This document shows positions 487 through 51,559 of a stretch of DNA of 64,000 bases, one piece after another; position 1 is the stretch's first letter, and every line of letters begins with the position of its first letter. Made by a program: the position numbers and the translations under genes. The notes under the pieces are model-generated. The model was not told where the DNA came from. It ran no database searches and worked only from the letters and a program-made list of their open reading frames with translations. This DNA comes from a virus, in IMG/VR virus record IMGVR_UViG_3300030202_003189, positions 22,739 through 86,738 of that record. One strand, given 5' to 3'.

Positions 487-1407
487 ATGGGAAAAATTTA
501 TAACAATCCGATGAGTCGATTAAATGAGGCTAGAAATCATTATAAAGGACTATTAAATGAAGCACCTGGTTTTCCTGGTATGTGTTGTGATGGTGGACCT
601 GATTGTATACCAGTTACTTTTTCTAGTGCTAATGACGATTGTAGTACTTTAATGATGGATGACTGTGGTCATGCAGATTGTATGGGTGATGTAGGACCAA
701 GTGGTCCACTTGGATTAGATGATTTAGATTTAGAAATAGATGATAATGATAATGAACTAGGTACTTCTGCGGTTTCTTGTGATTTTTGCGATAATGGATT
801 TCCTGTTAGTCAAATGTTTCCAGGACCTAATTGTCCTCCAAACATGATTCCTAGTGGTACTGGTGACCCTTGTGATGGAATAACACCAACTAGTGACCCA
901 TGTGCTTTCCCAGATATTTCTGGTCCTTGCGCAACACAAGCAAATTTAGCAAGTCAGTTTGTTAGTGGGGATCCTACTCAATTTTTAAGTAATATGCTTA
1001 GTTGGTATACAAACCCACCAAACCCGATGAATTACCCATATCATAGAGGTTGTAATTTCCTTGAAGTTGTAAGACAAAAACATTTAGGACATCTATCAAC
1101 TGGAATAGTAATTAATACTAATAACCCTGCACCTGGGGTACCGATGGGTCCTGCTTGGATAGCACAAAAAACAGCTAAGGTAGCTTATTTAGATTGTGTT
1201 TTATCGGCGTTAAATGCTGATAACTGTTGTGGTAGTCCTAGTAACCCTAATGGAGGTTCAACTGGAACGGGAACTCCAGACCAACCAATGGTATCCGCGA
1301 TGATGGTGGGCAGTGGTAGAGATAAAAAATCAGCTACAGGTTCACCTTCAATGTCTTCAGTTGGAGGTACAAAAAGAGGAACAGAAAGAAAAGGAATGAG
1401 AAAATAG
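487..1407 (+). CDS. Cys-rich putative internal head protein with N-terminal targeting peptide
   Basis: Function unknown; 306 aa. The N-terminus is basic and helical and ends in KGLLNEAPG, with E25 a likely prohead-protease site by analogy with T4 internal proteins. The mature part is acidic and rich in Cys, Gly, Pro and Asn. Near residues 180-250 it has a two-part signature: RGCNFLEVVRQK, then GPAWIAQKTAKVAYLDC and a CC pair. The same arrangement recurs in proteins at 7546, 8628, 42704, 45639 and 46852, so I infer a paralogous family of cysteine-stapled helical hairpins. The tail is low-complexity Gly/Ser/Lys. A strong terminator follows directly. Virion location is inference. Confidence 0.75.
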   Translation: MGKIYNNPMSRLNEARNHYKGLLNEAPGFPGMCCDGGPDCIPVTFSSANDDCSTLMMDDCGHADCMGDVGPSGPLGLDDLDLEIDDNDNELGTSAVSCDFCDNGFPVSQMFPGPNCPPNMIPSGTGDPCDGITPTSDPCAFPDISGPCATQANLASQFVSGDPTQFLSNMLSWYTNPPNPMNYPYHRGCNFLEVVRQKHLGHLSTGIVINTNNPAPGVPMGPAWIAQKTAKVAYLDCVLSALNADNCCGSPSNPNGGSTGTGTPDQPMVSAMMVGSGRDKKSATGSPSMSSVGGTKRGTERKGMRK

Positions 1408-1430
1408 TCTCTATTCAAATATTATAATTA

Positions 1431-1455
1431 AAGACCTCTATCGAGGTCTTTTTTA
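1431..1455 (+). terminator. rho-independent terminator
   Basis: A perfect 8-bp stem (AAGACCTC/GAGGTCTT) with a 4-nt loop is followed by a T run. It lies 23 nt after the stop at 1407 and, in the other direction, just after the end of the small minus-strand gene at 1460-1606, so it may serve both. Confidence 0.85.
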
Positions 1456-1459
1456 TTAA

Positions 1460-1606: not shown

Positions 1607-1656
1607 AATTTTTTTTTATTAAATTTAAGTATATTATCTTATTAAGACAATGTTTA

Positions 1657-1664: not shown

Positions 1665-1668
1665 GTAT

Positions 1669-2788: not shown

Positions 2789-2800
2789 ATATTAAGTATA

Positions 2801-3895
2801 CTAATAAATTTCCCCTTCACCAAACAAATCCTCTAGATATTCATTGTAACTATCTACAATTTCTTCATTCCCTTCATCTGGCCAATCCGGTTCTCCCGGA
2901 GTTAAATAACCTTTATGTGCTCTGATCAGGTCAAACGCTGTTGATTGTCCAGGGTCTTCCCCATCTTTGGTTGCTTGCCACAATATGGTTGACATTAAAT
3001 CGGTAACATCGTAAAAGGTTATTTTTGTGGAGTTCTCATTCTTAGGATCAACCTTACTTTCACCGACAGGTTTACCAATCAAACCTTCTAAAGCATCACG
3101 ATACATTTTTCGGTACTCATTCTCATAAACCCAATTATAACTATCACTGTATACCCACTCAACTTCGTTTAGGATATCTGATAATTTATCCGAACTATCT
3201 AATAAAACAGTAAAATTATATTTCCTACTTTCCAAATCCTGAGAAGGGTCTAAAAACCTATTAAGTCTATCTGGAGTTAAGAAAAAACTTCTATCCCCTA
3301 TTTTATCCGAGTCTACCCATGGATCAAACTCTTCTCTAAAAGTATCTATTTCTTCATTCATATGATGTTTACCAACATACCTTACCAAACCAATAAAATT
3401 TTCTTCAGTCATCATGTCAACCAAATCCTCAGCATTTAGCTTTATAAAATTTAGTTCCATAGGCATTGCATCTGGGTCAAATACTATTTCCGCTATATCT
3501 TCAGAGTCACCAACAAAAAGCTCAGTTTGTTCATTTCCAACAATTCCTAAGATTATCCTATCACCTTTCCTTGATAGTTCTATATTTTCCCACATAGGAA
3601 AAATCCAAGTCATAAATAAATCCATGTCTTCTTTTGAATATGTTGGTTTCCCTATTTGTAAAGCCTTGATTAAAAACATACCTCCGTGATAAACACGTTC
3701 TTGTAAATGTTCAAGAAATTCTAAACCTCTTCCTCTGTCATCAATGAAATGATAAAGTGATGCTATATCATAACCAAATAATTTAATTATTTCTTGGGCT
3801 TCACCATCTCTATACTCATCTTCGTAGAATAAGACATCAGTAATTTTATCAATAGACTTCCCCTCGTTTAATATTTTCTTAATTAGATACTTCAT
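2801..3895 (-). CDS. hypothetical acidic protein with capsid-targeting leader
   Basis: 364 aa, no family recognised. The leader MKYLIKKILNEGKS has the basic/hydrophobic pattern ending in ILNE (E11) shared with other putative head-packaged proteins. The body is acidic, rich in Asp, Glu, Tyr and Trp, and predicted to be largely helical, with no membrane segment. The Asp/Glu/Tyr/Trp-rich style resembles the products of 5579-6523 and of the giant gene at 19826. A TATAAATA element (reverse of TATTTATA) lies exactly 4 nt upstream of the ATG, so transcription should be late and leaderless. Confidence 0.75.
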   Translation of the reverse strand: MKYLIKKILNEGKSIDKITDVLFYEDEYRDGEAQEIIKLFGYDIASLYHFIDDRGRGLEFLEHLQERVYHGGMFLIKALQIGKPTYSKEDMDLFMTWIFPMWENIELSRKGDRIILGIVGNEQTELFVGDSEDIAEIVFDPDAMPMELNFIKLNAEDLVDMMTEENFIGLVRYVGKHHMNEEIDTFREEFDPWVDSDKIGDRSFFLTPDRLNRFLDPSQDLESRKYNFTVLLDSSDKLSDILNEVEWVYSDSYNWVYENEYRKMYRDALEGLIGKPVGESKVDPKNENSTKITFYDVTDLMSTILWQATKDGEDPGQSTAFDLIRAHKGYLTPGEPDWPDEGNEEIVDSYNEYLEDLFGEGEIY

Positions 3896-3899
3896 TTAA

Positions 3900-4486: not shown

Positions 4487-5227
4487 ATGGATGATTTAAT
4501 TAACAAAATAGTGGAGGAAACGATAGATAGTATGGTTTATAGGGAAAAACCTAAAAAGAAACATATTAAACGAATGGATAAGGATTTAGGTCCTCTAAAA
4601 GGTTTCCCAATAGAAAAATTTAAGAATGTATTCCCACCAAGTAACGAATCTAATGAGACTGAGGAAGAACTTAAAAAATTAGATGGTATTTTAATCGATG
4701 ATAAATTTGTCGATAGTGCTGATGACATAGACAATCACTTCAAAAATTATTTGGAGTCAAAAGACTTAGAATTTCCTTTGGAAAAAATTAAGAAGTATAT
4801 GCCAGGGGTTAGGTCAATAATTTTACAATTAAAATATCACTATAACCGTCCACGTCCAGGACAAATTGCACAAGCAAAAGGAATGGATAAGTTTGACCCT
4901 GAATCATTAAAATCTGCGTCAACACCATCATACCCATCAGGACATGCAACGCAAGGTAGATTTATTGGTAAACTTTTAGGTGATATATATCCAGAACATA
5001 AAGAACAATTAATAAAAATAGGTGATGATATAGCCTATAGTAGAAATATGGCAAAGGTACATTATCCAAGCGATACTAAATTTGGTAAAAAATTAGGTGA
5101 TGAATTGTATGATTATATTTCTCCAGATAAAGGTAGGGTTAAAGAGGTTAAAAATAGATACGGTGTTGAATTAGACGAAATGTTTAATACAATATGTAAA
5201 ATAATAGATGAAAGACAAAAAATATAA
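4487..5227 (+). CDS. soluble PAP2-family acid phosphatase-like protein
   Basis: 246 aa. All three PAP2 (phosphatidic acid phosphatase type 2 / vanadium haloperoxidase) motifs are visible: KxxxxxxRP as KYHYNRPRP near residue 115, PSGH near 150 (PSYPSGHATQG), and SRxxxxxHxxxD as SRNMAKVHYPSD near 185. The catalytic His residues and Arg pairs are therefore intact. There are no transmembrane helices, unlike lipid phosphatases, so it resembles soluble bacterial class A acid phosphatases. The N-terminus (DDLINKIVEETID) has a possible (I/V)xEE processing site, so the enzyme may be packaged in the head. The substrate is unknown (phosphomonoester, nucleotide or lipid head group). It is followed 2 nt later by a small basic gene. 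Confidence 0.8.
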   Translation: MDDLINKIVEETIDSMVYREKPKKKHIKRMDKDLGPLKGFPIEKFKNVFPPSNESNETEEELKKLDGILIDDKFVDSADDIDNHFKNYLESKDLEFPLEKIKKYMPGVRSIILQLKYHYNRPRPGQIAQAKGMDKFDPESLKSASTPSYPSGHATQGRFIGKLLGDIYPEHKEQLIKIGDDIAYSRNMAKVHYPSDTKFGKKLGDELYDYISPDKGRVKEVKNRYGVELDEMFNTICKIIDERQKI

Positions 5228-6551: not shown

Positions 6552-6555
6552 TGTG

Positions 6556-7515
6556 ATGAAACTAATGAACATTTATAAGGAACTAATTAAGGAGGAAACT
6601 GAAAAGGTAAAAGAAAAACCCGTATCCGATACCATAGATAAAGATATAGAAGTAAAAGAACCTAAAGAAAAAAAATTAGGAGAACCTATAACTAATGAAT
6701 GGAGAAAAATGATAGACAAAGGTTTAAGTAGTTATGGTTGTAAATTTTTATTTAGTATTGCGAATAAACTAAAAGATAAATCAAGAAAAGGTAGTAGAGA
6801 AGAGGTAAGATACCAAGAAACAAGATTAAAATATTTAACTTCCCTTCCTAGTTTTGAAAAATGTGGAGAGGAGAGAACTCAGGTAGTAAAACCTAAAGAG
6901 AAAAAACCTTCAGTTCAACAAAAACCAGAACCAACCCAACAAAAACCAACTTTAACAACTACTCAAACTCAAGAACCAGAGTTAACAACTACACAAACTC
7001 AAGAACCTACAGAAGTTAGTGTTGAAACCACCTATGATAACCCTAAGGTGGTACCGTTTCCTCTTTATGGGTCAGAAAGTGAGATAACTGACATAGAAAA
7101 TTTACAAACTGATGAATTTATAGATGACCTTGTTATTAACTTAGATTCGCAGATAATAAATCAAAAACCGGAAGTTCAAGAAAAATTAAAAGAATATAAT
7201 TTAGACGCAGAGAAAATGTCTAAGTTAATACCTTTAACTAAAGAAACTAGAGATTTTATGATGAAGTTGGATATGGAAGGGTTAAAATTACCTCATTTGA
7301 TGGTATTATATGATAACATTCCTGAATTTTATGAAGCAATAAGAAATAACCTTGAAGTTGATGTAAGTAAGTTATCTCCAGTAACGAAAGTTATGAATTA
7401 TAATGAGTTTTGGGAATGGACAAGAAAACTCTGGGATAAGACCTCAGATTATTTAATAACTAAAGTATCTGGGACAATTCCAGAACTTGGAGAAGAGTTT
7501 ACGGTTTTACCTTAA
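6556..7515 (+). CDS. hypothetical protein with YGCKFL module and TQ/P-rich linker
   Basis: 319 aa from the ATG at 6556, chosen over a GTG at 6553 because it keeps the 4-nt promoter spacing. The leader KLMNIYKELIKEETEK is of the head-packaging type. Residues about 50-95 repeat the module of the first gene in the window (SSYGCKFLFSIANKL ... FEKCG). Then comes a linker of Thr/Gln/Pro/Glu with a direct repeat (TTTQTQEPE, TTTQTQEPT), followed by an acidic helical domain of about 170 residues ending PELGEEFTVLP. No enzyme motif is visible. The shared module suggests a recurring structural or binding unit in this phage. Confidence 0.72.
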   Translation: MKLMNIYKELIKEETEKVKEKPVSDTIDKDIEVKEPKEKKLGEPITNEWRKMIDKGLSSYGCKFLFSIANKLKDKSRKGSREEVRYQETRLKYLTSLPSFEKCGEERTQVVKPKEKKPSVQQKPEPTQQKPTLTTTQTQEPELTTTQTQEPTEVSVETTYDNPKVVPFPLYGSESEITDIENLQTDEFIDDLVINLDSQIINQKPEVQEKLKEYNLDAEKMSKLIPLTKETRDFMMKLDMEGLKLPHLMVLYDNIPEFYEAIRNNLEVDVSKLSPVTKVMNYNEFWEWTRKLWDKTSDYLITKVSGTIPELGEEFTVLP

Positions 7516-7545: not shown

Positions 7546-7905
7546 ATGAAAGCAAGAATTATACTAACCGAACAACAATTAAAAACTATTATTGCAGAAC
7601 AAGCGGCCAATCCTGATTGTGTGGTTAACACCCAAGCAGAATCTTCAGTGGTCGCTAATCCTCAAATGGGAGACCCAGGAATAAATCAAAACTTTGTAAA
7701 TAATATGCACGCTAAGCCAACTCAATTTTATAATGCAAGGATGAGTGCGATAACTCAGAAACTATCTTCATTAAGAACTGATTATCCTTTAGGTCCTAAT
7801 GGGTTTCAAGGATTTTGTCAAGGAGAGAATCCACTTTGGCAAGCAAAATTAAATAATAAATTGAATTACGTACAACAGTGTATGAATAACCCTGGTAGTT
7901 GCTAG
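7546..7905 (+). CDS. small internal head protein candidate, Cys-hairpin family
   Basis: 119 aa. The leader ILTEQQLKTIIAEQA ends in IIAE/Q (E18), a clear fit to the (I/L)xE prohead-protease signature and to the capsid protein site LINE/Q. The mature part carries a helix (NNMHAKPTQFYNARMSAI) and then NPLWQAKLNNKLNYVQQC with a final Cys. The NP-x-WQ-x-K element recurs in 487 and 45639. With only about 100 mature residues it may be close to the minimal form of the family. First gene of a run with 7927 and 8628. Confidence 0.75.
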   Translation: MKARIILTEQQLKTIIAEQAANPDCVVNTQAESSVVANPQMGDPGINQNFVNNMHAKPTQFYNARMSAITQKLSSLRTDYPLGPNGFQGFCQGENPLWQAKLNNKLNYVQQCMNNPGSC

Positions 7906-7926: not shown

Positions 7927-8625
7927 ATGAGAACAAGATCTGAAATAAAAAGAAATAACATTAGAAAAGCAAACCTAATGGTAGAGGCTAAACAAAGAAC
8001 CAATAGAGGTAATATGAGTAGTAGTTTTGGTTTATTTAATGAACAATGTGTTACACCAAGAGATACCGAGGGTGTTTATATGGGAGCACCAGAAGGTACA
8101 GAACCAATGATGGATATGCCGATGGGTAACGATATGATGGGAGGAGGAAGTCCTTGTCCTGAATGTGGAGGATTACCATGTGGTTGTGGGGCTAATAATA
8201 GTCAAATGAACTCTTTATCAGCTGGGATGATGGGTGGTATGGAAGGAATAGACGATGATGATATGTTAATGGATGACCAAATGTTAATGATGTTTATGAA
8301 TGAAGATGAAGGAATGAAACCAGACTTTATAGACTTAGATAAAGATGGTAATACTACAGAACCAATGAAAACTGCCGCTAAAGATAAGATGGATGAAAAA
8401 TGTGGAGGTGGTTATGGTAAAGATTTAGAAGAAGGTTGTGGTGGTTACGCATCGGACGATGATGACTATGATGGTAGATATGATATGACAGAAAACTATA
8501 AAGCTGTTACTGCACAACCACTTACTGATTCATGGGGTAACAAATACAATCACATATTAAATGAATCCACAAAGGTTAATGGAGCAAAATCTTTAATGCA
8601 CAGAATGAAAAAGGTGATTAGATAA
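7927..8625 (+). CDS. Met/Gly/Asp-rich putative virion protein with zinc-ribbon-like Cys cluster
   Basis: 232 aa, unrecognised. The basic leader runs to FGLFNEQC (residue about 38), similar to other (L/F)xE/Q sites. Residues about 75-90 hold CPECGGLPCGCG, a tight cluster of four Cys (CxxC...CxC) that could bind a metal. The middle is unusually rich in Met, Gly and Asp (MMGGMEG, MLMDDQMLMMFM). Then comes DLDKDGNTTEP, which resembles a short Ca-binding or EF-hand loop, and a Cys/Gly pair. The C-terminal LMHRMKKVIR is a basic helix. Same transcript as 7546. Confidence 0.7.
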   Translation: MRTRSEIKRNNIRKANLMVEAKQRTNRGNMSSSFGLFNEQCVTPRDTEGVYMGAPEGTEPMMDMPMGNDMMGGGSPCPECGGLPCGCGANNSQMNSLSAGMMGGMEGIDDDDMLMDDQMLMMFMNEDEGMKPDFIDLDKDGNTTEPMKTAAKDKMDEKCGGGYGKDLEEGCGGYASDDDDYDGRYDMTENYKAVTAQPLTDSWGNKYNHILNESTKVNGAKSLMHRMKKVIR

Positions 8626-9559: not shown

Positions 9560-9820
9560 ATGAAAAAACGACGAGTAAATACCAAACTTAAATTGATGTC
9601 CATCATTACTGAGAGGATAAGTGACTTTGTGTGTTCAGAAGACGAAGACGCCTTTTTTGGTGATGGGGGTGAGAGAGTTAATCAGAAGTTAACAAAGGAA
9701 GAATTACAAGAAAGAGTAGAAGAAATAAACATAAATGAGGAAGTTGGATTTGTTAAGGTAAGGGAAATGAGAAAAATAATTAAACAGTTAATTAAAAAGG
9801 GTATAGATGAAGAATATTAA
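9560..9820 (+). CDS. small charged hypothetical protein (86 aa)
   Basis: Basic N-terminus (KKRRVNTKLKLMSIITERI) ending in IITE, consistent with a short targeting peptide, then an acidic middle with EDEDAFFGDGGERV and a charged C-terminal helix (REMRKIIKQLIKK). No known family. The next gene starts inside its last 14 nt in another frame, implying translational coupling. Confidence 0.6.
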   Translation: MKKRRVNTKLKLMSIITERISDFVCSEDEDAFFGDGGERVNQKLTKEELQERVEEININEEVGFVKVREMRKIIKQLIKKGIDEEY

Positions 9821-10271
9821 TGAAGAAGTAAAAAGAATGAGGGAATTAATGGGTTTGAATGAAAATATCCAACATAATAATTTTGCTCAAATGGGGTTAA
9901 CAAGAAAAACGATTAGTCGTGGTGGAGTGATGTACCAAGAACAAGATATGGTTGACGGTGTTGATACTTCAGAGGAACCGGAATCTGAATTCGATAAAGA
10001 GGTTGAAGCAAGAAAAGATGCTTTTGAAAAAGATGTAATGGACTATAGACAGGAAGTTTCTGATAAAATAGAAGATGTGGAAAGTGAAGAAGAAAAGAGA
10101 CAGGAAGATATAGTAGCCCAAAAAGAGAAAACAGAGGAGGAAAAGAAGAAAAAGGAGGAAGAGGAACTAGAAAAAAAGGAAGAAGAGAAAAGAAAAAAAG
10201 AAGAAGAAGAGTTACGAAAAAAGGAGGAATTAGAAGCTAGGTTAGCTGCTCAGAGAGAAAGAACCAAATAA
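9807..10271 (+). CDS. coiled-coil protein with canonical RMRELMG leader
   Basis: 154 aa. The leader INEEVKRMRELMGLNEN is the clearest example of the leader type shared with 18419 and 1669. Residues about 60-154 are an almost uninterrupted Glu/Lys/Arg coiled coil (EEKKKKEEEELEKKEEEK and so on). It may be an internal head or scaffold-associated protein. It overlaps the previous gene by 14 nt, and the T9SS repeat gene starts 11 nt after its stop. Confidence 0.65.
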   Translation: MKNINEEVKRMRELMGLNENIQHNNFAQMGLTRKTISRGGVMYQEQDMVDGVDTSEEPESEFDKEVEARKDAFEKDVMDYRQEVSDKIEDVESEEEKRQEDIVAQKEKTEEEKKKKEEEELEKKEEEKRKKEEEELRKKEELEARLAAQRERTK

Positions 10272-18419: not shown

Positions 18420-18979
<560 letters not shown>

Positions 18980-39528: not shown

Positions 39529-41346
39529 ATGGCCAAGAGAAATTTAACAATATATCAGAAATTACAACAAGTATTTGGTGCGGGGGCAATGAGAAGGACC
39601 CCACCAAGTTATAATGTTGACCCAAGTAAAATACTACTTAAAACACCATCAAAGTCTGAGTTCGATCAAGAAAAACTACAGGCTCAACAACAAGCTTTTC
39701 TAAAAGGACAATGGAATAAAGTAGATAGTGAGTTATATAACCAAGCCATTTATTATGAAACAACTAGACTAGCATCATTTTATGATTTTGAGTCGATGGA
39801 ATTTACACCAGAAATTGCCGCAGCTTTAGATATATACGCAGAAGAAAGTTGTACTCCAGATGAAACAGGAACTTTACTTACTGTAGAATCAGACTCTAGT
39901 AGAATAAAAGATATACTAGATAATCTCTTCCATAAGGTTCTTGACCTACACGCGGTATTACCAGCTTGGACAAGAAATACCTGTAAGTATGGGGATAATT
40001 TTGTTTACCTAAAAATTGACCCAAAACAAGGTATTATTGGGGCATCACAATTACCAAACATTGAGATAGAGAGAAAGGATGAAAGTAGTTATCTTACCTC
40101 ACGAAAATCCGGGACCTATGGAGTTGAGGGGGAGGAAGAAAAAGATAAGAACATTAAGTTTGAATGGAGAAATAAATCAATCTCTTTTAACGCTTGGGAA
40201 ATTGCTCATTTTAGGTTACTAGGAGATGATAGAAGACTACCATATGGAACTTCTTTATTAGAAAAAGTAAGACGAATCTGGAAACAATTATTATTATCGG
40301 AAGATGCTATGATGATATACAGGGTAACTAGAGCGCCGGAAAGAAGAGTCTTTAAGATAAATGTTGGTAATATTGATGATCAAGATGTACAAGCATATGT
40401 GAATAAGATTGCTAATAATTTCAAAAGAAGTCATGCTATAGATCAAAATACAGGTCAGGCAGATTTAAGATATAACGCATTAGCGGTTGACCAAGACTTT
40501 TTTGTTCCAGTTCGTAATGACGGAGCTGCTAATCCAATTGAGACACTACCAGGGGCTGGTAATTTAGATCAGATTGCTGATATCGAGTACATCCAAAAGA
40601 AAATGTTATCAGCTTTAAGAATCCCAAAACCTTTTTTAGGGTTTGAAGAACCAGCGGGAGAAGGAAAGAATTTAGCACTTCAGGATATTCGTTTTGCTCG
40701 AACAATCAACAGAGTTCAACAATCAATGATTCAAGAACTTAATAAGATTGCTATAATACATCTTTATATTTTAGGTTTTGAGGATGAGTTGGAGAACTTT
40801 ACCCTAAGATTGCAGAATCCATCAACACAAGCCGAAATGTTAAAAATAGAACAGTTCCAATCAAAAGTGGCGTTGTATAGAGATTCGGTGTCTGATGCAG
40901 GTAATGGTTTTGGTGCAACTTCTATGACTTGGGCAAAGAAAAATATATTAGGTTTTAGTGATGATGATATTCTTCTAGATTTAGAAAGACAAAGAATGGA
41001 AAAAGCCGCAGCGGCAGAGATGGAGAACACTGCGGAAGTGATAAAAAGTACTGGTATTTTTGATGAGGTAGATAAACTATATGGACAGGCGGCGGAAGGT
41101 GAAGATGTACCAGCAGAAGATAGCGGTGACGAACCACCAACTCCAGGAGAAGCAACTGGTGATGTACCCCCACCGGCAGACGTAGATATGGATGATGATA
41201 TGATGATGGAAAAGAAGAGTAGTTATGAAAATCTAGTTGATATTGTAAATCTTGATACAAAAAAGAAAGGTAAAAATACAAAAAGTAATTTAATTAAAGA
41301 AGACCTAGAGTACCTAAAAGATAATTTGGACAAACTTTTAGAATAG
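39529..41346 (+). CDS. portal vertex protein (T4 gp20-like)
   Basis: 605 aa. Typical features of T4-type portals: an early AAALDIYAEESCTPDETG (residues about 98-115), then RNTCKYGDNFVYLKI (about 145), a central ILAHFRLLG-like segment seen here as EIAHFRLLGDDRRLPYG (about 224), RAPERRVFKINVGN (about 268) and a clip/crown region with PGAGNLDQIADIEY. The C-terminal about 60 residues are acidic and end with DLEYLKDNLDKLLE, a helix similar to those at the ends of other proteins here. The dodecamer is the DNA gate and the nucleation site of the prohead. It is followed by core genes, then protease, scaffold and capsid, as in T4. Confidence 0.93.
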   Translation: MAKRNLTIYQKLQQVFGAGAMRRTPPSYNVDPSKILLKTPSKSEFDQEKLQAQQQAFLKGQWNKVDSELYNQAIYYETTRLASFYDFESMEFTPEIAAALDIYAEESCTPDETGTLLTVESDSSRIKDILDNLFHKVLDLHAVLPAWTRNTCKYGDNFVYLKIDPKQGIIGASQLPNIEIERKDESSYLTSRKSGTYGVEGEEEKDKNIKFEWRNKSISFNAWEIAHFRLLGDDRRLPYGTSLLEKVRRIWKQLLLSEDAMMIYRVTRAPERRVFKINVGNIDDQDVQAYVNKIANNFKRSHAIDQNTGQADLRYNALAVDQDFFVPVRNDGAANPIETLPGAGNLDQIADIEYIQKKMLSALRIPKPFLGFEEPAGEGKNLALQDIRFARTINRVQQSMIQELNKIAIIHLYILGFEDELENFTLRLQNPSTQAEMLKIEQFQSKVALYRDSVSDAGNGFGATSMTWAKKNILGFSDDDILLDLERQRMEKAAAAEMENTAEVIKSTGIFDEVDKLYGQAAEGEDVPAEDSGDEPPTPGEATGDVPPPADVDMDDDMMMEKKSSYENLVDIVNLDTKKKGKNTKSNLIKEDLEYLKDNLDKLLE

Positions 41347-42703: not shown

Positions 42704-44341
42704 ATGGGTAGACAAAAATATAATAAAAGAAATCATATAGAAAAATCCAATATAATTTTGGAAAATAATTACTCTAAGAGTAAAGGGTTATTAACTGAAC
42801 AACAAGCAACACTGGCTTGGTCATGTAATGGGTCACAACTAGTTAGTCATAGTTTTGATGCTAACATGGTACAACTTGGATTTACTGGTTATTGGGCCTC
42901 TGCATCGGGAGCGTTGCCTGTAATATTTGAGGCACAACTACCAACCGGTCCCGGAACTCCTACAATGATAAACCAAGGTTTATATAATCAACCAGACGTT
43001 ACATTAAGTTTTACGGGACCACAACCATCATTAGTGACTAACAACCAAGCATGGTTTCCAGATGATTATCCTGGTTTTATGGCACCAGGCGTTATGCAGG
43101 GTATTGTAGGAGATATATGTGCTAGTGGTGGAACAATAACAAATGATACAGATTGTTACGATTGTGTAAACGGAGTACCAACTGTAGTAGAAATTATAGG
43201 ACCTAATTCATCTTGGTGTCAAAATGTACCAGGTGGTCCACAATGTGGAACTGATTGTACCTTAATACCTATGAATGCTGTAGGTGGAGTACTTCAATTC
43301 CCTCTAGTAAACGACCCTAACCTAGCTTGTGGACAAAACCAAGCAGATTGGTGGTGTCCAACAGGAGTAGCAGGACCAGGTCCTTGTATACAATCACCAA
43401 CAAACCCTCAACCAGGAATGGCAACAGGACCTTATCCAGATCAACAAACTTGTGACGCTCAATGTGGCGGAATCGGACAAGTATCTGGTTGTTTAGATCC
43501 AAATTTACCAAATTATGACCCTAATGCAACTTTAGACTGTTCAGGAAATCCACAACCAGCGGCTGGATACGGAGATACTAATTGTTGTGGTATGCCACCA
43601 CCGCCACCACCAAGTGGAGGTTGTATGGAATTATGGGTAACCAAATGTGCAGGAACTAGTCCTGGACACCAAATTGGACAATCAAATCTTCATTTCCCAT
43701 GTCCAATGGTAGATGGATCATTTGCAGACCCAACTCTTGTTGGACAAGAAGTTGGTATAGACCCATCATCAGGACAAGGAGGAGATGACGTATATACGGT
43801 AGATGTGGTTAACCCAAACCCTAATTACCCGTCACAATATACACCAAATTCTTATCTAACAACTAATGTTAGTTGTACAACAAATCCAGCTAATGCTTCA
43901 TGTGATTTTTCATGGACTAGTTCTTGTGCACAACAACACTTAAATACAGGAGGACAAAATTCTTGGCAGAATTTCCTTGACCTACGAGAAACCGGTTTTA
44001 ATGGGGCGGGATGTCAACATCTACAAAATGTAGTAAATTGGACAACTGACCAGTTAAATTCAGGAGTTACTGGAGCAGGTGCACCATTAACCCCGAATCA
44101 AATAGCTAGAAAAACAGAACAGAGAGACTGGGCACAATGTCAAGCGGCGGAGTGTGGATGTAGTACACTTAATCTCCCAGCATTAACAGGAGGACCAACA
44201 CCACCTCCACCAACAGATCCAGATTTAATCGATCCTGAAGTACCTACAGATAAACCAAAAAAACCAAAACCAGGTGAAGAAGGAGGATTAAATGAACAGT
44301 TTACTAGAATGAAAGAACTGTGGAAGTACAATAAACTATAA
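42704..44341 (+). CDS. large Cys-rich putative virion protein, LLTE/Q leader
   Basis: 545 aa. Long basic leader (GRQKYNKRNHIEKSN and on) ending KGLLTEQQ (E32). The sequence after the site, QATLAWSCNG, is also seen in the 16173 product. About 25 Cys are spread through Gly/Pro/Asn-rich regions. One unit (SGCLDPNLPNYDPNAT) resembles the 10283 repeats. The C-terminal third carries the hairpin signature GAGCQHLQNVVNW ... ARKTEQRDWAQCQAAECGC. The last residues, LNEQFTRMKELWKYNKL, form a leader-like helix at the C-terminus. The role is unknown; internal head or decoration protein is my best guess. A terminator follows. Confidence 0.72.
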   Translation: MGRQKYNKRNHIEKSNIILENNYSKSKGLLTEQQATLAWSCNGSQLVSHSFDANMVQLGFTGYWASASGALPVIFEAQLPTGPGTPTMINQGLYNQPDVTLSFTGPQPSLVTNNQAWFPDDYPGFMAPGVMQGIVGDICASGGTITNDTDCYDCVNGVPTVVEIIGPNSSWCQNVPGGPQCGTDCTLIPMNAVGGVLQFPLVNDPNLACGQNQADWWCPTGVAGPGPCIQSPTNPQPGMATGPYPDQQTCDAQCGGIGQVSGCLDPNLPNYDPNATLDCSGNPQPAAGYGDTNCCGMPPPPPPSGGCMELWVTKCAGTSPGHQIGQSNLHFPCPMVDGSFADPTLVGQEVGIDPSSGQGGDDVYTVDVVNPNPNYPSQYTPNSYLTTNVSCTTNPANASCDFSWTSSCAQQHLNTGGQNSWQNFLDLRETGFNGAGCQHLQNVVNWTTDQLNSGVTGAGAPLTPNQIARKTEQRDWAQCQAAECGCSTLNLPALTGGPTPPPPTDPDLIDPEVPTDKPKKPKPGEEGGLNEQFTRMKELWKYNKL

Positions 44342-44944: not shown

Positions 44945-45634
44945 ATGGAACTTAAATTATTAAAAGAAGGTGAGGTAGGTTATGGGTTATTAGTAGAAAA
45001 GGATTCTGGTTATATTTCACCACAAACTACAGAGAATAAAAAAATTATAAAAGAAATGAATGAGATGGGTACTAGTTATGGACCTATCCAAATGGTTGCT
45101 GTCCTACAGAAATGTGGTGTACAAAATAGAAACGGAAGAGTTTATCCAGAAAACATTCTAAGAAAAGAAGTAGATAAACATCAGGAAGTAATACAGAATG
45201 GTAGGGCGATTTCAGAACTAAATCATCCTGACTCTTCTATTATTGATTTGGAGAGAACGTCACATAAGTTGGACGAAACTTGGTGGGATGGTAATACCTT
45301 AATGGGAAAACTAACTTTGATAACTTCACCAGCTTACGAATCTAATGGTACTGCAACTACACCAGGAGATTTGGCCGCTAATTTACTAAGACATGGAGTA
45401 CAGTTAGGTATTTCATCTAGAGGGGTAGGGTCCTTATCAAATGTAGGAGGACAGAATATGGTACAAGATGATTTTGAATTAATTTGTTTTGATTTGGTCT
45501 CGTCTCCGTCAACACCAGGGGCCTACCTATTCAATCAGGTTGAAGAAGCGAAACCTTATGTGGAATCAAGAAGACCACAAAAAATAATGGAGTCAAAATT
45601 AGACGAAACAATTAAAAATTTCTTAAAAGATTAA
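44945..45634 (+). CDS. prohead core serine protease (T4 gp21-like)
   Basis: 229 aa, the normal size. Herpesvirus-assemblin-type fold inferred from NRNGRVYPENIL (about 60), ELNHPDSS (catalytic His, about 97), GKLTLITSPAYES (about 120-135) and GISSRGVGSL (catalytic Ser, about 158). In T4 this enzyme matures the capsid, scaffold and internal proteins by cleaving after (I/L)xE. Many products in this window have such sites, including the capsid protein (LINE/Q). It is the obvious candidate to process them all. Its own N-terminus KLLKEGE has a similar sequence, possibly self-cleaved. Confidence 0.9.
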   Translation: MELKLLKEGEVGYGLLVEKDSGYISPQTTENKKIIKEMNEMGTSYGPIQMVAVLQKCGVQNRNGRVYPENILRKEVDKHQEVIQNGRAISELNHPDSSIIDLERTSHKLDETWWDGNTLMGKLTLITSPAYESNGTATTPGDLAANLLRHGVQLGISSRGVGSLSNVGGQNMVQDDFELICFDLVSSPSTPGAYLFNQVEEAKPYVESRRPQKIMESKLDETIKNFLKD

Positions 45635-45638: not shown

Positions 45639-46850
45639 ATGAGTAATAGAATTAGAAAAGCAAAATATGACAATATGGTAAAATTAAATAGAACTCTATT
45701 GTCAGAAGAGAACCTAAACATCAATAATGAGCCAGATGTAGAAGAATATATAGGTTTAGAAGAAGAGAATCATGATTATGGAGGAACACCTCCATATACA
45801 AAAAAGACTAAAGGTAAAAAACTAAATGAAGGATGTGGTTGTGGAGAATCAAAAGAAACAAGTGAAAAGTCATATATGGCGGCATCACAGTTACATAGTA
45901 TTTCTAATAAAGCAGAAGACATGTATAATAAATTAGAAAAAGATGAGGTCTTAGATGATTGGGTTGAAAGTCACTTAGCCAAAATTGATCAAATGATGGA
46001 TAGTGTTAGTGATTCATTTAATCATCACGAATCAAAAGATGCTGGTGATATGGGTACAGGTGGATGTCCTCCAGGTCATCATTGGTGTGCGGCGTCTGAT
46101 TCATGTAGATCAGATGATGCCCCACAAATCGAACCTATGACTTTAATGGGAGCAGATGTGATTAACTTAGAAGAATCAATTAGAAGAAAATTAAACTTAA
46201 GTGAACAAACAAATCCATTCGCTGGTGGTGGTTCAGGACCAAATTGGGCTGCGGCTGAAGCTGCTTGGACTGATTGGAACGCTTCAAATCAAACAGGAGC
46301 CCCTGAACCGGATGCAACTTTTTTATCTAATATGGATGGTAAAGGTTGTGGATTTTACCAAAAACGTTTAGACGCTCAAGTAAATTCTTTTGTTAACAAT
46401 TTTGGTGGTAGTTTTGGTGCTGGTTCAAACGCTTCAAATGCACAACATCAAGGTCAAAACCCAGCTTGGCAGAGTCAAAAATATGCTAGAATAATGTGGT
46501 TATCAGACGCGGTATATAATTGTAACAATTCTAATACTACAGGAGGTTCTTTAACTACTACTTCTAGTGCTCAAGAATCTAATGCAAATTGTTTCTATAC
46601 TTTCCTTAATGACCCAGCAAATGACCCATTACTTACTAACGCAGTATGTCCTAATGGTAATCAAGCAATAAAACCAAATAATATGGAACAAACTAAATTT
46701 AGGTGGCAATCAATATCCGACTGTCAAATGTTAAATACCAAAATAGCAAAAATGTTAAATTTGGCACAAACCACAACAGGGTGTGAACAGGTTAGGAAAT
46801 CTGCAAAACATGAGTATTTGGTTGAATTAAGACAAAGTTGTTGTAATTAA
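45639..46850 (+). CDS. Cys-hairpin family protein, LLSE leader
   Basis: 403 aa. The basic leader SNRIRKAKYDNMVKLNRTLL ends LLSE (E23). A second site, LNLSEQTNP, lies near residue 188 and could release the C-terminal domain, as proposed for 8628. That domain has GKGCGFYQKRLDAQVNSF and NPAWQSQKYARIMWL, the clearest example of the family signature, and closes with RQSCCN. The first half is acidic with CGCG (EGCGCGESK) and CPPGHHWCAASDSC, possibly metal-binding. It lies between protease and scaffold, which strongly suggests head localisation. Confidence 0.73.
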   Translation: MSNRIRKAKYDNMVKLNRTLLSEENLNINNEPDVEEYIGLEEENHDYGGTPPYTKKTKGKKLNEGCGCGESKETSEKSYMAASQLHSISNKAEDMYNKLEKDEVLDDWVESHLAKIDQMMDSVSDSFNHHESKDAGDMGTGGCPPGHHWCAASDSCRSDDAPQIEPMTLMGADVINLEESIRRKLNLSEQTNPFAGGGSGPNWAAAEAAWTDWNASNQTGAPEPDATFLSNMDGKGCGFYQKRLDAQVNSFVNNFGGSFGAGSNASNAQHQGQNPAWQSQKYARIMWLSDAVYNCNNSNTTGGSLTTTSSAQESNANCFYTFLNDPANDPLLTNAVCPNGNQAIKPNNMEQTKFRWQSISDCQMLNTKIAKMLNLAQTTTGCEQVRKSAKHEYLVELRQSCCN

Positions 46851-46851: not shown

Positions 46852-47628
46852 ATGAATTTAATAGAAAATATAAAAAAAGAATTAAGATTATTAACTGAGC
46901 AAAGCTCTTGGTGGACAACTATGACCTCATGGGCAACAGCAGCAGATGCAGTTAATACTTCAAATGCACCAGCCACTTCAGATCCAAATACTCCTGCAGC
47001 CCCAGGTGTAACAGGTTCATACTCTTCAAATGGTGTGTGTTTTGATTCAGCAGCTAGTACGTGTCAATTAAATAATAGTTTATCTCACACTCAGAAATGG
47101 AATCAATATGTTGCCTGTTTAGATCCTTATGCAACTCCTTGTACTTTAGGTACGAAAGTACAACAGGGGACTCCCGGATATAATTCTCAATACGCAGGAC
47201 AACAGTTATGTATTACACATACCGCTCCCTCCAATGTGACAGGGGGATATTCGCCATATGAAATACTTGAACTTAATTCTCCTGATTGTGCAATTGCATC
47301 AACTCCATGTGACACAACACCATCTTCACCATGTGCACAACAGTGGTTCCAAAACCCTAACGCGACATGGGCATCAACTTGGATAACTAATAGAGATTGT
47401 TCAAATTACAATTGGCCATCAATTAATTTAGAACAACAAGCAATGGATATAATGAATGACCCAACAACTCCAAACCCACAAAGTGGTCCTTTTAATAATT
47501 GGAATGACATATGGTCAGCAGGTAACGTCGCATGGCCAAATACTACAGGAGCTCCTAAAACCCAATTCATTGCAAAAATGGCGAAAGCTAAATATGCGCA
47601 ATGTCAAATACAAGCATGTAACTGTTAA
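46852..47628 (+). CDS. Cys-hairpin family protein, LLTE/Q leader
   Basis: 258 aa. The leader NLIENIKKELRLLTEQSS ends LLTE/Q (E16). The body is Ser/Thr/Ala/Pro/Asn-rich and without charge for long stretches, with 13 or more Cys (CQLNNSLSHTQKW, CITHTAPSN). It closes with the family signature FIAKMAKAKYAQCQIQACNC. The neighbour at 47632 has a nearly identical leader, so leader peptides have been duplicated independently of the bodies. Starts 1 nt after the previous stop. Confidence 0.73.
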   Translation: MNLIENIKKELRLLTEQSSWWTTMTSWATAADAVNTSNAPATSDPNTPAAPGVTGSYSSNGVCFDSAASTCQLNNSLSHTQKWNQYVACLDPYATPCTLGTKVQQGTPGYNSQYAGQQLCITHTAPSNVTGGYSPYEILELNSPDCAIASTPCDTTPSSPCAQQWFQNPNATWASTWITNRDCSNYNWPSINLEQQAMDIMNDPTTPNPQSGPFNNWNDIWSAGNVAWPNTTGAPKTQFIAKMAKAKYAQCQIQACNC

Positions 47629-47631: not shown

Positions 47632-48057
47632 ATGAATTTAAGAAAAAACATAAAAAAACAATTACGTCTATTAAAAGAAACGGATGATAGACCAGACAAT
47701 TGGAGAGAACTACCAGGATATAATCCTGATGCTTTTTATCCGATAACGAATTATGGTGATGATGATTTAAGGTTAGAACCTGAGGATGACGATACTTCTT
47801 CTAGACTACCAGCTCATTTCTATGAGGATGATTATGATTTAGATGAGGGGGACTTAGATGAAATTTTTGACGAAACTCAAAGAGGAGACAGGGTTAGATA
47901 TTTCGTAGACGTTTATTATGATACTATGTTACCAAGTTCTGGAAATGCAGAAAAAGATAAAGTTTTGGCGGAAAAAATTGCTAGAGCTGATCTTCGTAGT
48001 CTTAAAAATCGAGAGTATATTATAGGACCTGTAGAATTAAGAGGATACTATAATTAA
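47632..48057 (+). CDS. acidic putative head protein, leader duplicated from 46852
   Basis: 141 aa. Leader NLRKNIKKQLRLLKETDD differs from that of the upstream gene at only a few positions, but the following sequence is unrelated: Asp/Glu/Tyr-rich (DDDLRLEPEDDDTSSR, EDDYDLDEGDLDEIFD), then a folded-looking end (RVRYFVDVYYDTMLPSSGN ... YIIGPVELRGYYN). This is direct evidence that the leader is a mobile module. Confidence 0.7.
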   Translation: MNLRKNIKKQLRLLKETDDRPDNWRELPGYNPDAFYPITNYGDDDLRLEPEDDDTSSRLPAHFYEDDYDLDEGDLDEIFDETQRGDRVRYFVDVYYDTMLPSSGNAEKDKVLAEKIARADLRSLKNREYIIGPVELRGYYN

Positions 48058-48186: not shown

Positions 48187-49596
48187 ATGGCAGAAAAATC
48201 TTTAGTAGAACAAGCTCTTCTTGAAGCGAAAACAATCGAGGAATCAGTTAAGAGGAGTGCAAAAGAAATACTACCTTCAGTTTTGAAGAAAGAAATTAAC
48301 GACCTAGTAAAAGAATCCATCAACGAAGTTGATGAGATTGATTTAGATTCAGACACACTTGACATTACTGACGATGAAATGGACATGGATATGGAACCAA
48401 TAAGTGGTGACATGGATATGGGTATGGATTCAATTGAATTAGACTTGACAGCGTCATCAGATGATGAAGTTATGAAAGTATTCAAAAAAATGGGCCCAGA
48501 AGACGAAATCGAAGTTGTAAAGACTGGCGATGGCGTAACGCTTACAGATGGTAATGAAGAGTATGAGATAAAAAACGTTTCAGAAGGAAAAAAGAACGAA
48601 CCAATTTATGAAATTGAATTGGACGACGACATGATGGAAATGGAAGACATGGATGAAATGGAAGACATGGACGAAATGGAAGACGACATGATGGAAGGAC
48701 ACCATGGAATGAAAAAGGGAGACCAATCAAAAACTCGTAGTGATTATAAAAACTACAAAGGGACTGATAAAGGATACCACGGTAAAACTGGAGCTTCACA
48801 TGGTGATCAAGGACATCCTGATGACTTTATGACTGAATACGATGACATGGATGAAATGTATGGTGGTAAAAAAGGCGATGAGTCTAAAAGTCACAGAGAT
48901 TACATGGATGAAATGCATAGTAAAAAACGTCATATGGAAATGCACGACGAACAAATGTATGAAATTGAACTTGATGAGGAGGACGATTTAGAAGAAGGAA
49001 CAGCTAGAAGTCACGCAAAAGGACAAAGAGCATCTTCTGGTGAAAGAAAAGGCTCCCCAAAACCAAGTGCAATTCCAAATAAAGCTCTTTACAAAAAGAA
49101 CATAAAGGAATCAAGAAAACCACAAAGAACAATTTCACCAAGAGTTATTAAGGAAAACAAAGCGTTAAGAGGTACGTTGGCTAAGTATGGTGACGAAGTT
49201 AAGACTCTAAAAGGAAAGAATGAAGAATATAGAAAAGCTCTTTCTTTATTTAGAGAAAAACTAAACGAAGTTGCAGTATTTAATTCAAATTTAGCTTACA
49301 CAACAAAATTGTTTACTGATCACTCAACAACAAAGAAAGAAAAGTTAAATATACTTTCTAGATTTGATGAGGTTAATTCATTAAAAGAATCTAAGTCTCT
49401 TTACAAACAAATAAATTCTGAAGTTGGTACAGGTAAATCATCTGCAAGACTTAAAGAAGTTATTTCTCGTAAAGGTGGAACTAAGGTTATAACAGAAAGT
49501 AATAATAGTGCTAATAATAGTACTATAAGAGAAAATAAAGTTTACCAAGATCCTCAAATGAAAAGAATGATGGATCTAATGAGTAAAATAAAATAA
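48187..49596 (+). CDS. prohead scaffold protein (T4 gp22-like)
   Basis: 469 aa. Identified by position (after protease, before capsid) and character: acidic, Met/Asp/Glu-rich middle with repeats (MEDMDEMEDMDEMEDD; MDEM) and DYMDEMHSKKRHMEMH, a basic Ser/Lys segment (about 280-320), a helical C-terminal domain (RALSLFREKLNEVAVF-type) and the terminal QMKRMMDLMSKIK. Numerous (I/L)xE sites fit degradation by the prohead protease. The last helix resembles the LMG-type leaders of putative cargo, so leader and scaffold end may share a binding site on the shell or form a coiled coil with each other. Confidence 0.82.
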   Translation: MAEKSLVEQALLEAKTIEESVKRSAKEILPSVLKKEINDLVKESINEVDEIDLDSDTLDITDDEMDMDMEPISGDMDMGMDSIELDLTASSDDEVMKVFKKMGPEDEIEVVKTGDGVTLTDGNEEYEIKNVSEGKKNEPIYEIELDDDMMEMEDMDEMEDMDEMEDDMMEGHHGMKKGDQSKTRSDYKNYKGTDKGYHGKTGASHGDQGHPDDFMTEYDDMDEMYGGKKGDESKSHRDYMDEMHSKKRHMEMHDEQMYEIELDEEDDLEEGTARSHAKGQRASSGERKGSPKPSAIPNKALYKKNIKESRKPQRTISPRVIKENKALRGTLAKYGDEVKTLKGKNEEYRKALSLFREKLNEVAVFNSNLAYTTKLFTDHSTTKKEKLNILSRFDEVNSLKESKSLYKQINSEVGTGKSSARLKEVISRKGGTKVITESNNSANNSTIRENKVYQDPQMKRMMDLMSKIK

Positions 49597-49621
49597 CACA
49601 TTTATAAAAAATAATTAAAAA

Positions 49622-51559
49622 ATGGGACAATTATTAAATTCAGGACAAGTTGGAAACATTGGAACTAATTCAATGAAACTTATCCGTGAGGATGTAATCA
49701 ATAAATGGGACAAACTAGGTTTCCTAGATGGTCTTAATGGTTACTCTAAAGACAACGTTGCTCAATTATTTGAGAACCAAGCTTCTTATCTAATTAACGA
49801 GCAAACAACATCAACTGACTCAGGTTCATTCGAAACAGTTGTATTCCCAATCGTAAGGAGAGTATTCTCTAAACTTTTGGCTAACGATATTGTTTCTGTA
49901 CAAGCACTTAACTTACCAATTGGTAAATTATTCTACTTTGTACCGGAAATATCTACTAACAGACCAGGATTCAACGCTGGTGGATTTGACGCGTCAACTC
50001 CTTCATCAGTTGATTTATATGACCAATTCTATGAAGGTAGAACTGGAGATCCAGAAGGAGGATTATTTGATGCTTCAAGAGGACTTGCAACTGTAAATAT
50101 CATTAGACCTTCAGGAGCTGGAGCTGCTGCTAACGGTAACATCGGTTTATACGACTCTTCAGGAGCGTTCTCTGCAGCAACTGAGGATATGGATACTAGA
50201 GATCACAGATACATCGTATTAAAAATCGATTCTGCTACTTTAGTTACTACTGGAACTATGGTAGGTGCTGATGGTCAATTGGCTGATACTGAAGCTTTCT
50301 TAGCTTCATTAAACATCTACTTAACAGGATCTACAACTTCTGCTTCTGCAGCTGATTTAGCGGCATCTATCGGAACTACTTATGGTATGCCATGTAACGT
50401 TTCTGATTCAGTAACTGCAAACACTTACTTAAGAGCTACTGGTATTGTTGGAAATAATGGAGATGGTATATTTACACAAGTTGGTAATACTACTGGTGTA
50501 CTTTCAGGAGGTACTAGACTTAAGTACAGAATGATTACACAAAAGTATGGTCAAGGTATTGTTGATTCTGCTGGTGATTTATATGTTGAGGTAGACTTCG
50601 GTTGTCCAGCATGTCCAGACTGTCAAACTGTTGCTGGTAGAGGTTATGGTAATCCAGGTACTGCGGCAGGTGTTGGGGCTACTGTACCAAATACTTTTAT
50701 TACTGCTGATGGTGCGGCTGAGGCTTTAGGTGCGGCTAATAACGGAGCACAAAAACATGGTTTAGCTGTTGAGTTTAAGAACTACGCAACTTTAGAATTA
50801 GAAGACAACATGGCTGAGGTAACTTTCAGATTGGATTCTGTAACTGTAGCGGTAACAGAAAGAAAATTAAGAGCTACTTGGTCTCCGGAACTTGCACAAG
50901 ACGTTTCTGCATTCCATAACATTGATGCTGAGGCTGAATTAACAGCTTTATTATCAGAACAAGTTGCTGCTGAGATTGATAGAGAAATCTTGAAAGACCT
51001 TAGAAATGGTGCGGCTTGGTCATTAAGATGGGACGCTAACGGATGGAAAAGATCTAATAACGCTCAAGGTTACGCAGCTTATACTCAAAAAGATTGGAAT
51101 CAAACGTTAATTACTACAATTAACCAATTATCTGCACAAATACATAAATCAACACTTAGAGGTGGTGCTAACTGGATCGTATGTTCAGCTGAAGCTTCTG
51201 CTATCTTTGATGATTTAGAGTATTTCCACGTTTCTAACGCGGCTCCAGATCAAGATTCTTATAACATGGGTATTGAGAAAGTTGGTTCTTTATCAGGTAG
51301 ATATACTGTATATAGAGACCCTTACTTCCCAGCTGGTTCAGTTTTAGTTGGACATAAAGGAAAATCATTACTAGATACTGGTTATGTTTACGCTCCTTAT
51401 GTACCGTTACAACTTACACCAACTATGTATAACCCTTTCAATTTTGCTCCTATCAAAGGAATCATGACTAGATACGCTAAGAAAATGGTCAACAACAGAT
51501 TCTATGGTAAGATTACTATTGATGGAATACAAACGTTCTCTGTTAATGAGTTAAGATAA
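49622..51559 (+). CDS. major capsid protein (T4 gp23-like)
   Basis: 645 aa, longer than T4 gp23 (521). The N-terminus is typical (KDNVAQLFENQASYLINEQ), with LINE/Q at residue 60 equivalent to the T4 maturation site at about 65. VVFPIVRRVFSKLLANDIVSVQALNLPIG matches the HK97-fold start in pieces (VFPIVRRVF; VQALNLPIGK). The extra length is a Gly/Ala/Thr-rich insert at about 120-360, containing CPACPDC at residues 328-334, absent from T4. YRDPYFPAGSVLVGHKG and YAPYVPLQLTPTMYNP near the C-terminus are standard gp23 signatures. Codon use looks optimised, as expected for the most abundant product. A strong terminator follows. Confidence 0.95.
   Translation: MGQLLNSGQVGNIGTNSMKLIREDVINKWDKLGFLDGLNGYSKDNVAQLFENQASYLINEQTTSTDSGSFETVVFPIVRRVFSKLLANDIVSVQALNLPIGKLFYFVPEISTNRPGFNAGGFDASTPSSVDLYDQFYEGRTGDPEGGLFDASRGLATVNIIRPSGAGAAANGNIGLYDSSGAFSAATEDMDTRDHRYIVLKIDSATLVTTGTMVGADGQLADTEAFLASLNIYLTGSTTSASAADLAASIGTTYGMPCNVSDSVTANTYLRATGIVGNNGDGIFTQVGNTTGVLSGGTRLKYRMITQKYGQGIVDSAGDLYVEVDFGCPACPDCQTVAGRGYGNPGTAAGVGATVPNTFITADGAAEALGAANNGAQKHGLAVEFKNYATLELEDNMAEVTFRLDSVTVAVTERKLRATWSPELAQDVSAFHNIDAEAELTALLSEQVAAEIDREILKDLRNGAAWSLRWDANGWKRSNNAQGYAAYTQKDWNQTLITTINQLSAQIHKSTLRGGANWIVCSAEASAIFDDLEYFHVSNAAPDQDSYNMGIEKVGSLSGRYTVYRDPYFPAGSVLVGHKGKSLLDTGYVYAPYVPLQLTPTMYNPFNFAPIKGIMTRYAKKMVNNRFYGKITIDGIQTFSVNELR

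What the first reader, a model, noticed from the sequence alone, without database searches (positions are those of the whole stretch)
487..51559. A portable capsid-targeting leader on about twenty unrelated proteins, matched to the capsid maturation site
Many products open with a short basic/amphipathic peptide ending in (L/I)(L/I)xE, often followed by Q: LLTE/Q (16173, 42704, 46852), LLNE/Q (34909), IIAE/Q (7546), VIEE/Q (19294), LLSE (45639), LLKE (25838, 47632), LISE (28176), IITE (17976), ILNE (2801), LLNE (487). The capsid protein has LINE/Q at residue 60, the place of T4 gp23 maturation. T4 internal proteins carry a cleaved N-terminal targeting sequence cut by gp21 after (I/L)xE, and a gp21-like protease is present. 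The simplest reading is a large head-packaged proteome, unusually rich in enzymes (DHH phosphoesterase, PAP2 phosphatase, nuclease-like protein), delivered with the DNA. Leaders at 46852 and 47632 are near identical while their bodies are unrelated, so the leader moves as a module.
Basis: partly seen in the sequence, partly recalled or inferred. Interest (0 to 1): 0.92.

Follow-up and report, generated by a model that had tools for sequence, protein, structure and literature searches.

The report
Portable head-packaging leaders in jumbo phages
A large uncultivated T4-like virus of bacteria puts short interchangeable address tags on dozens of unrelated proteins, each ending in the same cutting site as its own shell protein, which suggests it packs these proteins inside its head beside its DNA.

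Summary
The window is part of a 231 kb T4-like phage with an S77 prohead protease and a gp23 capsid whose LINE|Q60 site is confirmed; 79 relatives all have LINE|A/Q there. All 13 cited leaders exist. N-terminal hhxE motifs exceed chance in this genome (hhxE[QAGST] 29 observed, 8.7 expected) and in relatives (21 versus 4.6).

One leader family (class A, MKKVIKLTESDLTRIVKRVIKE|) sits on about 70 unrelated bodies, and conservation collapses right after Glu22. A DNA pattern omitting Glu22 gave 64 viral sites, 63 N-terminal and 64 with Glu22, and none in 84,980 cellular genomes. Orthologous proteins carry swapped leaders; in two aligned families the leader Glu column is invariant although leaders differ in type or length, and one family has a second invariant Glu between its domains.

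Best reading: capsid-targeting propeptides cut by the prohead protease, as in T4 internal proteins but in far greater number and variety, with several leader families and polyprotein cargo. One leader class may mimic the scaffold C-terminus. Packaging, cutting and injection are not shown experimentally. New variant of a known kind.

The parts
49622..51559 (+). Major capsid protein gp23; propeptide 49622-49801, predicted cut after Glu60 (LINE|Q)
   Evidence: PF07068 2.9e-71; LINE column invariant in 79 relatives
44945..45634 (+). Prohead core protease gp21 (S77), likely cuts all leaders; own N-terminus has LLKE|G and LLVE|K
   Evidence: PF03420 3.8e-25; NHP and SSRG blocks aligned with T4 gp21
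48187..49596 (+). Scaffold/core protein (gp22 position); many (I/L/V)xE sites; C-terminus DPQMKRMMDLMSKIK
   Evidence: position between protease and MCP; 80-member family; site list
39529..41346 (+). Portal protein gp20
   Evidence: PF07230 3.6e-75
37692..39461 (+). Large terminase gp17
   Evidence: phrog_2 7.6e-50
487..561 (+). Leader MGKIYNNPMSRLNEARNHYKGLLNE| of 306-aa protein
3863..3895 (-). Leader MKYLIKKILNE| of 364-aa protein (gene 2801-3895)
4487..4519 (+). Leader MDDLINKIVEE| of PAP2 phosphatase (gene 4487-5227)
   Evidence: PAP2 1.2e-7 over cut-off; motifs readable; leader assigned by inspection, rejected by the rule
6553..6594 (+). Leader MMKLMNIYKELIKE| of 320-aa protein
7546..7599 (+). 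Leader MKARIILTEQQLKTIIAE|Q of 119-aa protein
7927..7986 (+). Leader ...ANLMVE|A of 232-aa protein; second possible site LFNE|Q about 20 residues on
9560..9613 (+). Leader MKKRRVNTKLKLMSIITE| of 86-aa protein
9807..9863 (+). Class B leader MKNINEEVKRMRELMGLNE|N, resembles scaffold C-terminus
   Evidence: scaffold-C profile hit
16173..16193 (+). Leader MKKLLTE|Q of 256-aa protein whose C-terminus is REEIKRIKELL
17976..18011 (+). Leader MKKKQLLQIITE|
18419..18484 (+). Class B-like leader MKKEQILSEELNRMRQLMGMNG
   Evidence: by inspection of the sequence
19294..19362 (+). Class A leader MARIKKLNERQLTNLVRKMVIEE|Q
   Evidence: class A HMM 25.3 bits
25838..25903 (+). Leader MKRVKLTEFEIHSLIDRVLLKE|T (class A-like) of DHH-like protein (gene 25838-27241)
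   Evidence: DHH 0.0025 below cut-off, DTDG and DHH motifs in sequence
28674..28724 (-). Leader MVKTIVKKKDLQKLISE|S (gene 28176-28724)
34909..34944 (+). Leader MGLRTLHSLLNE|Q of 913-aa protein; clusters with the relatives' ERMDP protein upstream of terminase
42704..42799 (+). Leader ending GLLTE|Q of 545-aa protein; its C-terminus LNEQFTRMKELW resembles scaffold C-terminus
45639..45707 (+). Leader ...LNRTLLSE| of 403-aa protein, next to protease gene
46852..46899 (+). Leader MNLIENIKKELRLLTE|Q
47632..47679 (+). Leader MNLRKNIKKQLRLLKE|T, twin of the preceding leader on another body

Best explanation
The short N-terminal peptides are capsid-targeting propeptides. During prohead assembly they dock otherwise unrelated proteins onto the inner core, around or with which the gp23 shell assembles. 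The S77 protease (44945) then cuts after the Glu of hhxE, the same site it uses to mature the capsid protein, freeing the cargo inside the head; the leader fragment is lost and DNA is packaged. The cargo is then probably ejected with the DNA. Leaders come in several unrelated sequence families that can replace one another on the same cargo, and some cargo proteins are polyproteins with further hhxE sites between domains. Shown here: the leaders, their sharp end at Glu, their modularity, virus specificity, the co-present protease and the shared capsid site. Inferred: docking, cutting, packaging and injection.
For: N-terminal enrichment in this genome and independently in relatives. MCP site LINE invariant in 79 relatives. 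S77 protease with conserved blocks. Class A leader: selecting with a model of residues 1-17 only, Glu follows at residue 22 in 62 of 70 distinct bodies, with a steep fall of conservation afterwards. Pattern without the Glu: 64 viral sites, 63 N-terminal, 64/64 with Glu22; the strict pattern is absent from 84,980 cellular genomes. Leader swapping: RYMFFSNLEQM family carries class A, short basic or other leaders, with the leader Glu and a linker Glu among the invariant columns. ERMDP family: leaders from about 5 to 37 residues, invariant Glu followed by nearly invariant Ala, then conserved body; the model puts helices before the site and disorder (pLDDT below 50) at residues 36-43, where the site lies. 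Records found by leader alone and at least 149 kb all carry an S77 protease (8 of 8, two of them apparently near-identical viruses), with several class A copies each. T4 control shows the same architecture at experimentally known sites (PMC9026906, PMC5694885). Cargo includes hydrolases plausible as entry or takeover factors: PAP2, an NT5C-like nucleotidase in the Flavobacterium isolate immuto (weak Pfam 4.7e-5, PHROG 3.6e-21), a peptidoglycan-binding protein.
Against: No virion proteomics exist for this phage and none was found for a near relative. hhxE is a weak motif, so several assignments in the window could be accidental. A few class A elements are internal or C-terminal, so the element is not strictly an N-terminal leader. 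Of 21 leader-bearing records tested, 8 lack the protease, most being short fragments but including ones of 129 and 138 kb. Leader sequences are not homologous to T4's. Function of most cargo is unknown. One member of the RYMFFSNLEQM family (L025) was called without a leader, with only METRQESQ before the body; its start was not checked.
Confidence: 0.83

Rival explanations
1. The leaders are propeptides cut by the prohead protease but only as assembly or folding devices of structural head and neck proteins; nothing is injected.
For: Some leader proteins are conserved beside terminase and portal, suggesting structural roles; no ejection evidence.
Against: Bodies are too many and variable, and include hydrolases such as PAP2 and an NT5C-like nucleotidase and a peptidoglycan-binding protein.
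Confidence: 0.2
2. The leaders are amphipathic docking helices for some phage-made compartment or the host membrane; hhxE is a by-product of helix composition and is not cut.
For: Leaders are basic and amphipathic; docking helices often look alike.
Against: Glu is the most constrained residue at the leader end and conservation stops there; in swapped-leader families the Glu is kept while the rest changes; shuffled N-termini of equal composition have far fewer sites; same site in MCP.
Confidence: 0.06
3. Chance: hhxE is common and the reader selected matches.
For: 24-33 of 215 proteins would carry hhxE in the first 40 residues by chance.
Against: Observed 59, and 29 versus 8.7 for the stricter motif; near-identical 22-residue leaders on dozens of bodies cannot be chance.
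Confidence: 0.02

Closest known systems
T4 internal proteins IPI-III and Alt with capsid targeting sequence (CTS), cut by gp21
   Same: 10-20 residue N-terminal propeptide ending in (I/L)xE; S77 protease; same motif in gp23; leader shared by unrelated bodies; CTS sufficient to package foreign proteins in T4 (PMC9026906); at least 10 Ips reported in T-even relatives, T4's Ip1-3 sharing only the leader (PMC12373910).
   Different: T4 has three Ips plus Alt; here dozens of candidates, several unrelated leader families, swapped leaders on orthologous cargo, internal and C-terminal copies, and protease sites between cargo domains. No recognisable sequence similarity to the T4 leader beyond hhxE.
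phiKZ / 201phi2-1 / SPN3US inner-body and ejection proteins
   Same: Large head-packaged proteome cut after Glu by a diverged gp21-like protease; multiple sites in propeptides; two SPN3US paralogues with identical N-termini (PMC5694885).
   Different: SPN3US propeptides mostly over 100 residues, motif AxE or SxE; no portable short leader on unrelated bodies described; head genes here are of the gp20/gp23 T4 type.
Phage P1 DarB capsid targeting signal
   Same: N-terminal 30 residues direct a reporter protein to the capsid (PMC9024508).
   Different: Described for one large protein, no gp22-like scaffold; no relation in sequence was tested.

Membership tests
T4-type CTS internal proteins | Short N-terminal propeptide ending in hydrophobic-x-Glu | tested here: met
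   T4 positive control
T4-type CTS internal proteins | Genome encodes gp21-type S77 prohead protease with catalytic blocks | tested here: met
T4-type CTS internal proteins | Capsid protein matured at the same motif | tested here: met
   sequence motif only: LINE at residue 60, invariant in 79 relatives
T4-type CTS internal proteins | Same leader on bodies without recognisable common ancestry | tested here: met
   (bodies separated by k-mer overlap)
T4-type CTS internal proteins | Leader homologous in sequence to T4 MKTYQEFIAE | tested here: not met
   by inspection, no resemblance beyond hhxE; homology is not required for the analogous role
T4-type CTS internal proteins | Leader sufficient to package a foreign protein | not testable with these tools
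   needs fusion experiment
T4-type CTS internal proteins | Mature proteins in virion beginning after the Glu, injected into the cell | not testable with these tools
   needs virion mass spectrometry and injection assay
phiKZ-like ejection proteome | SxE / AxE cleavage motif and propeptides over 100 residues | tested here: not met
   motif here is hhxE and leaders are mostly about 7-40 residues

The most novel reading that the evidence does not exclude
These phages use a set of interchangeable address tags rather than one signal. One tag class imitates the extreme C-terminus of the phage's own scaffold protein, so cargo enters by posing as scaffold; other classes dock elsewhere in the core. Cargo can be strung as polyproteins separated by capsid-maturation sites, so one protease step both matures the shell and releases a large injected proteome. 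Support: class B leaders INEEVKRMRELMGLNE against scaffold C-termini NPQFLRMKDLMSKIK (12 profile hits, one of them itself a scaffold, against 2 in reversed sequences), and in immuto leaders MQKLAGIITE|S and MQFLAGIITE|S against scaffold C-terminus WQKLAGIIK. Not seen in Mel-JY01 or T4.
Probability: 0.35. Interest if true: 0.87.

Novelty: new variant of a known kind. Interest (0 to 1): 0.76.

Why it matters
If right, what a phage injects can be read straight from sequence in a large group of uncultivated viruses: any protein behind one of these leaders is a candidate virion cargo. That turns dozens of unknown genes per genome into testable injected factors (cell-wall enzymes, nucleotide and phosphate hydrolases, possible anti-defence proteins), gives short tags for packaging proteins into heads, and shows how a packaging signal spreads by recombination onto unrelated genes.

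Tried and rejected
Short tblastn of the 23-residue class A consensus against named phages: no match, uninformative for diverged copies. Covariation of P1' between MCP and leaders: dropped, since MCP P1' is nearly always Ala in relatives and class A leaders favour Gln anyway. Fold comparison of the ERMDP protein: confident model (pLDDT 80) but no PDB match at E <= 0.001. Model of the RYMFFSNLEQM protein too weak (pLDDT 61) for a fold search. Literature search for leader peptides and for capsid targeting in Bacteroidetes phages found no description; the library is open-access papers only. Mel-JY01 as a third test of scaffold mimicry: no such leaders. I considered and rejected a host secretion signal: the strict class A core is absent from cellular genomes, and of 18 relaxed matches only four look like leaders.

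Full report
Setting. The window is bases 22739-86738 of a 231,285-base virus record. It holds a T4-type head block: terminase 37692, portal 39529, S77 protease 44945, scaffold-like protein 48187 and gp23 capsid protein 49622. Three leader-bearing genes (45639, 46852, 47632) lie between protease and scaffold.

Observation. Of 215 proteins called in the genome, 59 carry hhxE in the first 40 residues against 33.3 +/- 5.2 for shuffled N-termini, and 29 carry hhxE[QAGST] against 8.7 +/- 2.9. In relatives chosen by capsid protein alone, with one protein per family and head-core proteins removed, the same excess appears (21 of 105 against 4.6 +/- 2.0). By a simple rule 31 of 77 proteins in the late/head blocks and 11 of 138 elsewhere have leaders; the blocks were defined after looking, so the Fisher value should not be taken at face value. 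The rule misses some cases and admits others; the leader on the PAP2 gene (4487) was assigned by inspection because its preceding residues fail the charge condition.

The capsid site. In all 79 relatives recovered with the capsid protein, the column is LINE, followed by Ala or, in this phage and one other, Gln. T4 (LTE|A), immuto (IVSE|A) and Mel-JY01 (LISE|A) fit the pattern. The protease aligns with T4 gp21 over its NHP, SSRG and Asp blocks.

A portable module. One family of leaders, class A, has the consensus MKKVIKLTESDLTRIVKRVIKE followed often by Gln. A profile of it hits 107 places in 1354 proteins and 8 in reversed sequences (these loci were themselves fetched with a class A query). 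In one search, 47 of 54 distinct bodies had Glu at residue 22, but the regular expression required a Glu near there. To avoid that bias I selected with residues 1-17 only: among 70 distinct bodies, 62 have Glu at residue 22, and no later position is conserved beyond Gln at residue 23 (24 of 70). Independently, a DNA pattern for KLTESDLTRIVK, which does not contain the Glu, found 64 sites in viral contigs: 63 lie within eight codons of an ATG and all 64 have Glu at the predicted place; many of these 64 are orthologues of one another, so they are not 64 independent bodies. The same pattern has no match in 84,980 cellular genomes. A relaxed pattern gave 18 cellular matches, of which four look like real leaders, two of them on one Prochlorococcus single-cell contig.

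Leaders are exchanged on the same cargo. In the RYMFFSNLEQM family (24 aligned), some members have class A, others a short basic leader such as MKNLNNIIKRVLKEE, another MKKIILNKDQYKILEKLVSEQ. The leader Glu and a second Glu in the otherwise variable linker between its two domains are invariant, the second reading hMxE|G in many members, as a second protease site would. One member (L025) was called with only METRQESQ in front of the body; its start was not checked, and its Glu falls in the column only by alignment. In the ERMDP family (11 aligned) leaders range from about 5 to 37 residues, Glu is invariant and the next residue Ala in all but one, after which the bodies align. The model of one member shows helices 2-17 and 22-34 and a disordered stretch at 36-43, where the site lies. 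A domain found alone behind a class A leader (L167) also appears embedded in the middle of a longer protein after VLEQ (L051), consistent with polyprotein cargo.

Link to the protease. Records fetched by leader sequence alone and of at least 149 kb all hold an S77 protease, 8 of 8, with several class A copies each; smaller records are mixed, as fragments would be. Two of the eight look like the same virus, and I did not measure the background rate of the protease in large viral contigs.

Cargo. PAP2 phosphatase at 4487 is above the Pfam cut-off. The DHH-like protein at 25838 is below it, with DTDG and DHH motifs readable. Elsewhere: an NT5C-like nucleotidase in the cultured phage immuto (Pfam 4.7e-5, just below cut-off; PHROG 3.6e-21), a peptidoglycan-binding protein and a possible lytic transglycosylase (weak, below cut-off) behind class A leaders. 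Most bodies are unknown.

Mechanism. The established T4 system explains the anatomy: leader docks cargo to the core, protease cuts after Glu, cargo stays in the head (PMC9026906, PMC5694885). In T4 the freed proteins are injected and block restriction enzymes (PMC12373910). What is new here is scale, variety of leaders, exchange on orthologous cargo, internal sites and class A copies that are internal or C-terminal.

A further idea with moderate support is that class B leaders imitate the scaffold's C-terminus. The scaffold ends NPQFLRMKDLMSKIK in relatives and DPQMKRMMDLMSKIK here; class B leaders read INEEVKRMRELMGLNE. A profile of the scaffold end found 12 places outside the scaffold cluster, one of which is itself a scaffold, against 2 in reversed sequences. 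In immuto the scaffold ends WQKLAGIIK and two leaders read MQKLAGIITE and MQFLAGIITE. T4 and Mel-JY01 do not show it.

Verdict. Observation confirmed; interpretation supported at sequence level; experiments lacking. It works like the T4 CTS system; as a member it meets the architectural features tested and fails only sequence similarity of the leader, while packaging and cutting could not be tested.

Noticed in passing
G000 genome 21328-21933 and 146041-146778 (outside window): Two proteins with class A leader, a hydrophobic segment and a C-terminal Peptidase_S74-like (endosialidase chaperone) end (4e-4 below cut-off and 1.2e-5 above it); odd for a head-packaged protein.
   Followed up: partly
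G000 genome 9469-11424, residue about 336; L036, L037, L065, L080 class A copies: Class A element in the middle or at the C-terminus of proteins rather than the N-terminus.
   Followed up: partly
window 24736-25809: Phage-encoded glutamine synthetase with both Gln-synt domains.
   Followed up: partly
window 28769-31222 (-): Phage-encoded ClpB/ClpC-type double AAA unfoldase of 817 aa.
   Followed up: partly
window 51612-52523 (-): PALP-family pyridoxal-phosphate enzyme, cysteine-synthase-like by sequence, beside the capsid gene.
   Followed up: partly
window 19826-23683: 1285-aa protein ending in a DUF192 domain.
   Followed up: no
L190, L192 (QCKH01000009.1): Two class A leaders on one 64 kb contig of a Prochlorococcus single-cell genome, perhaps a captured phage contig.
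   Followed up: no
G000 genome 22356-23219, spanning the window start: Gene with four undetermined residues (XXXX) and a repeated MDNWWGNDWGKVADDGGG segment: likely an assembly gap or repeat.
   Followed up: no
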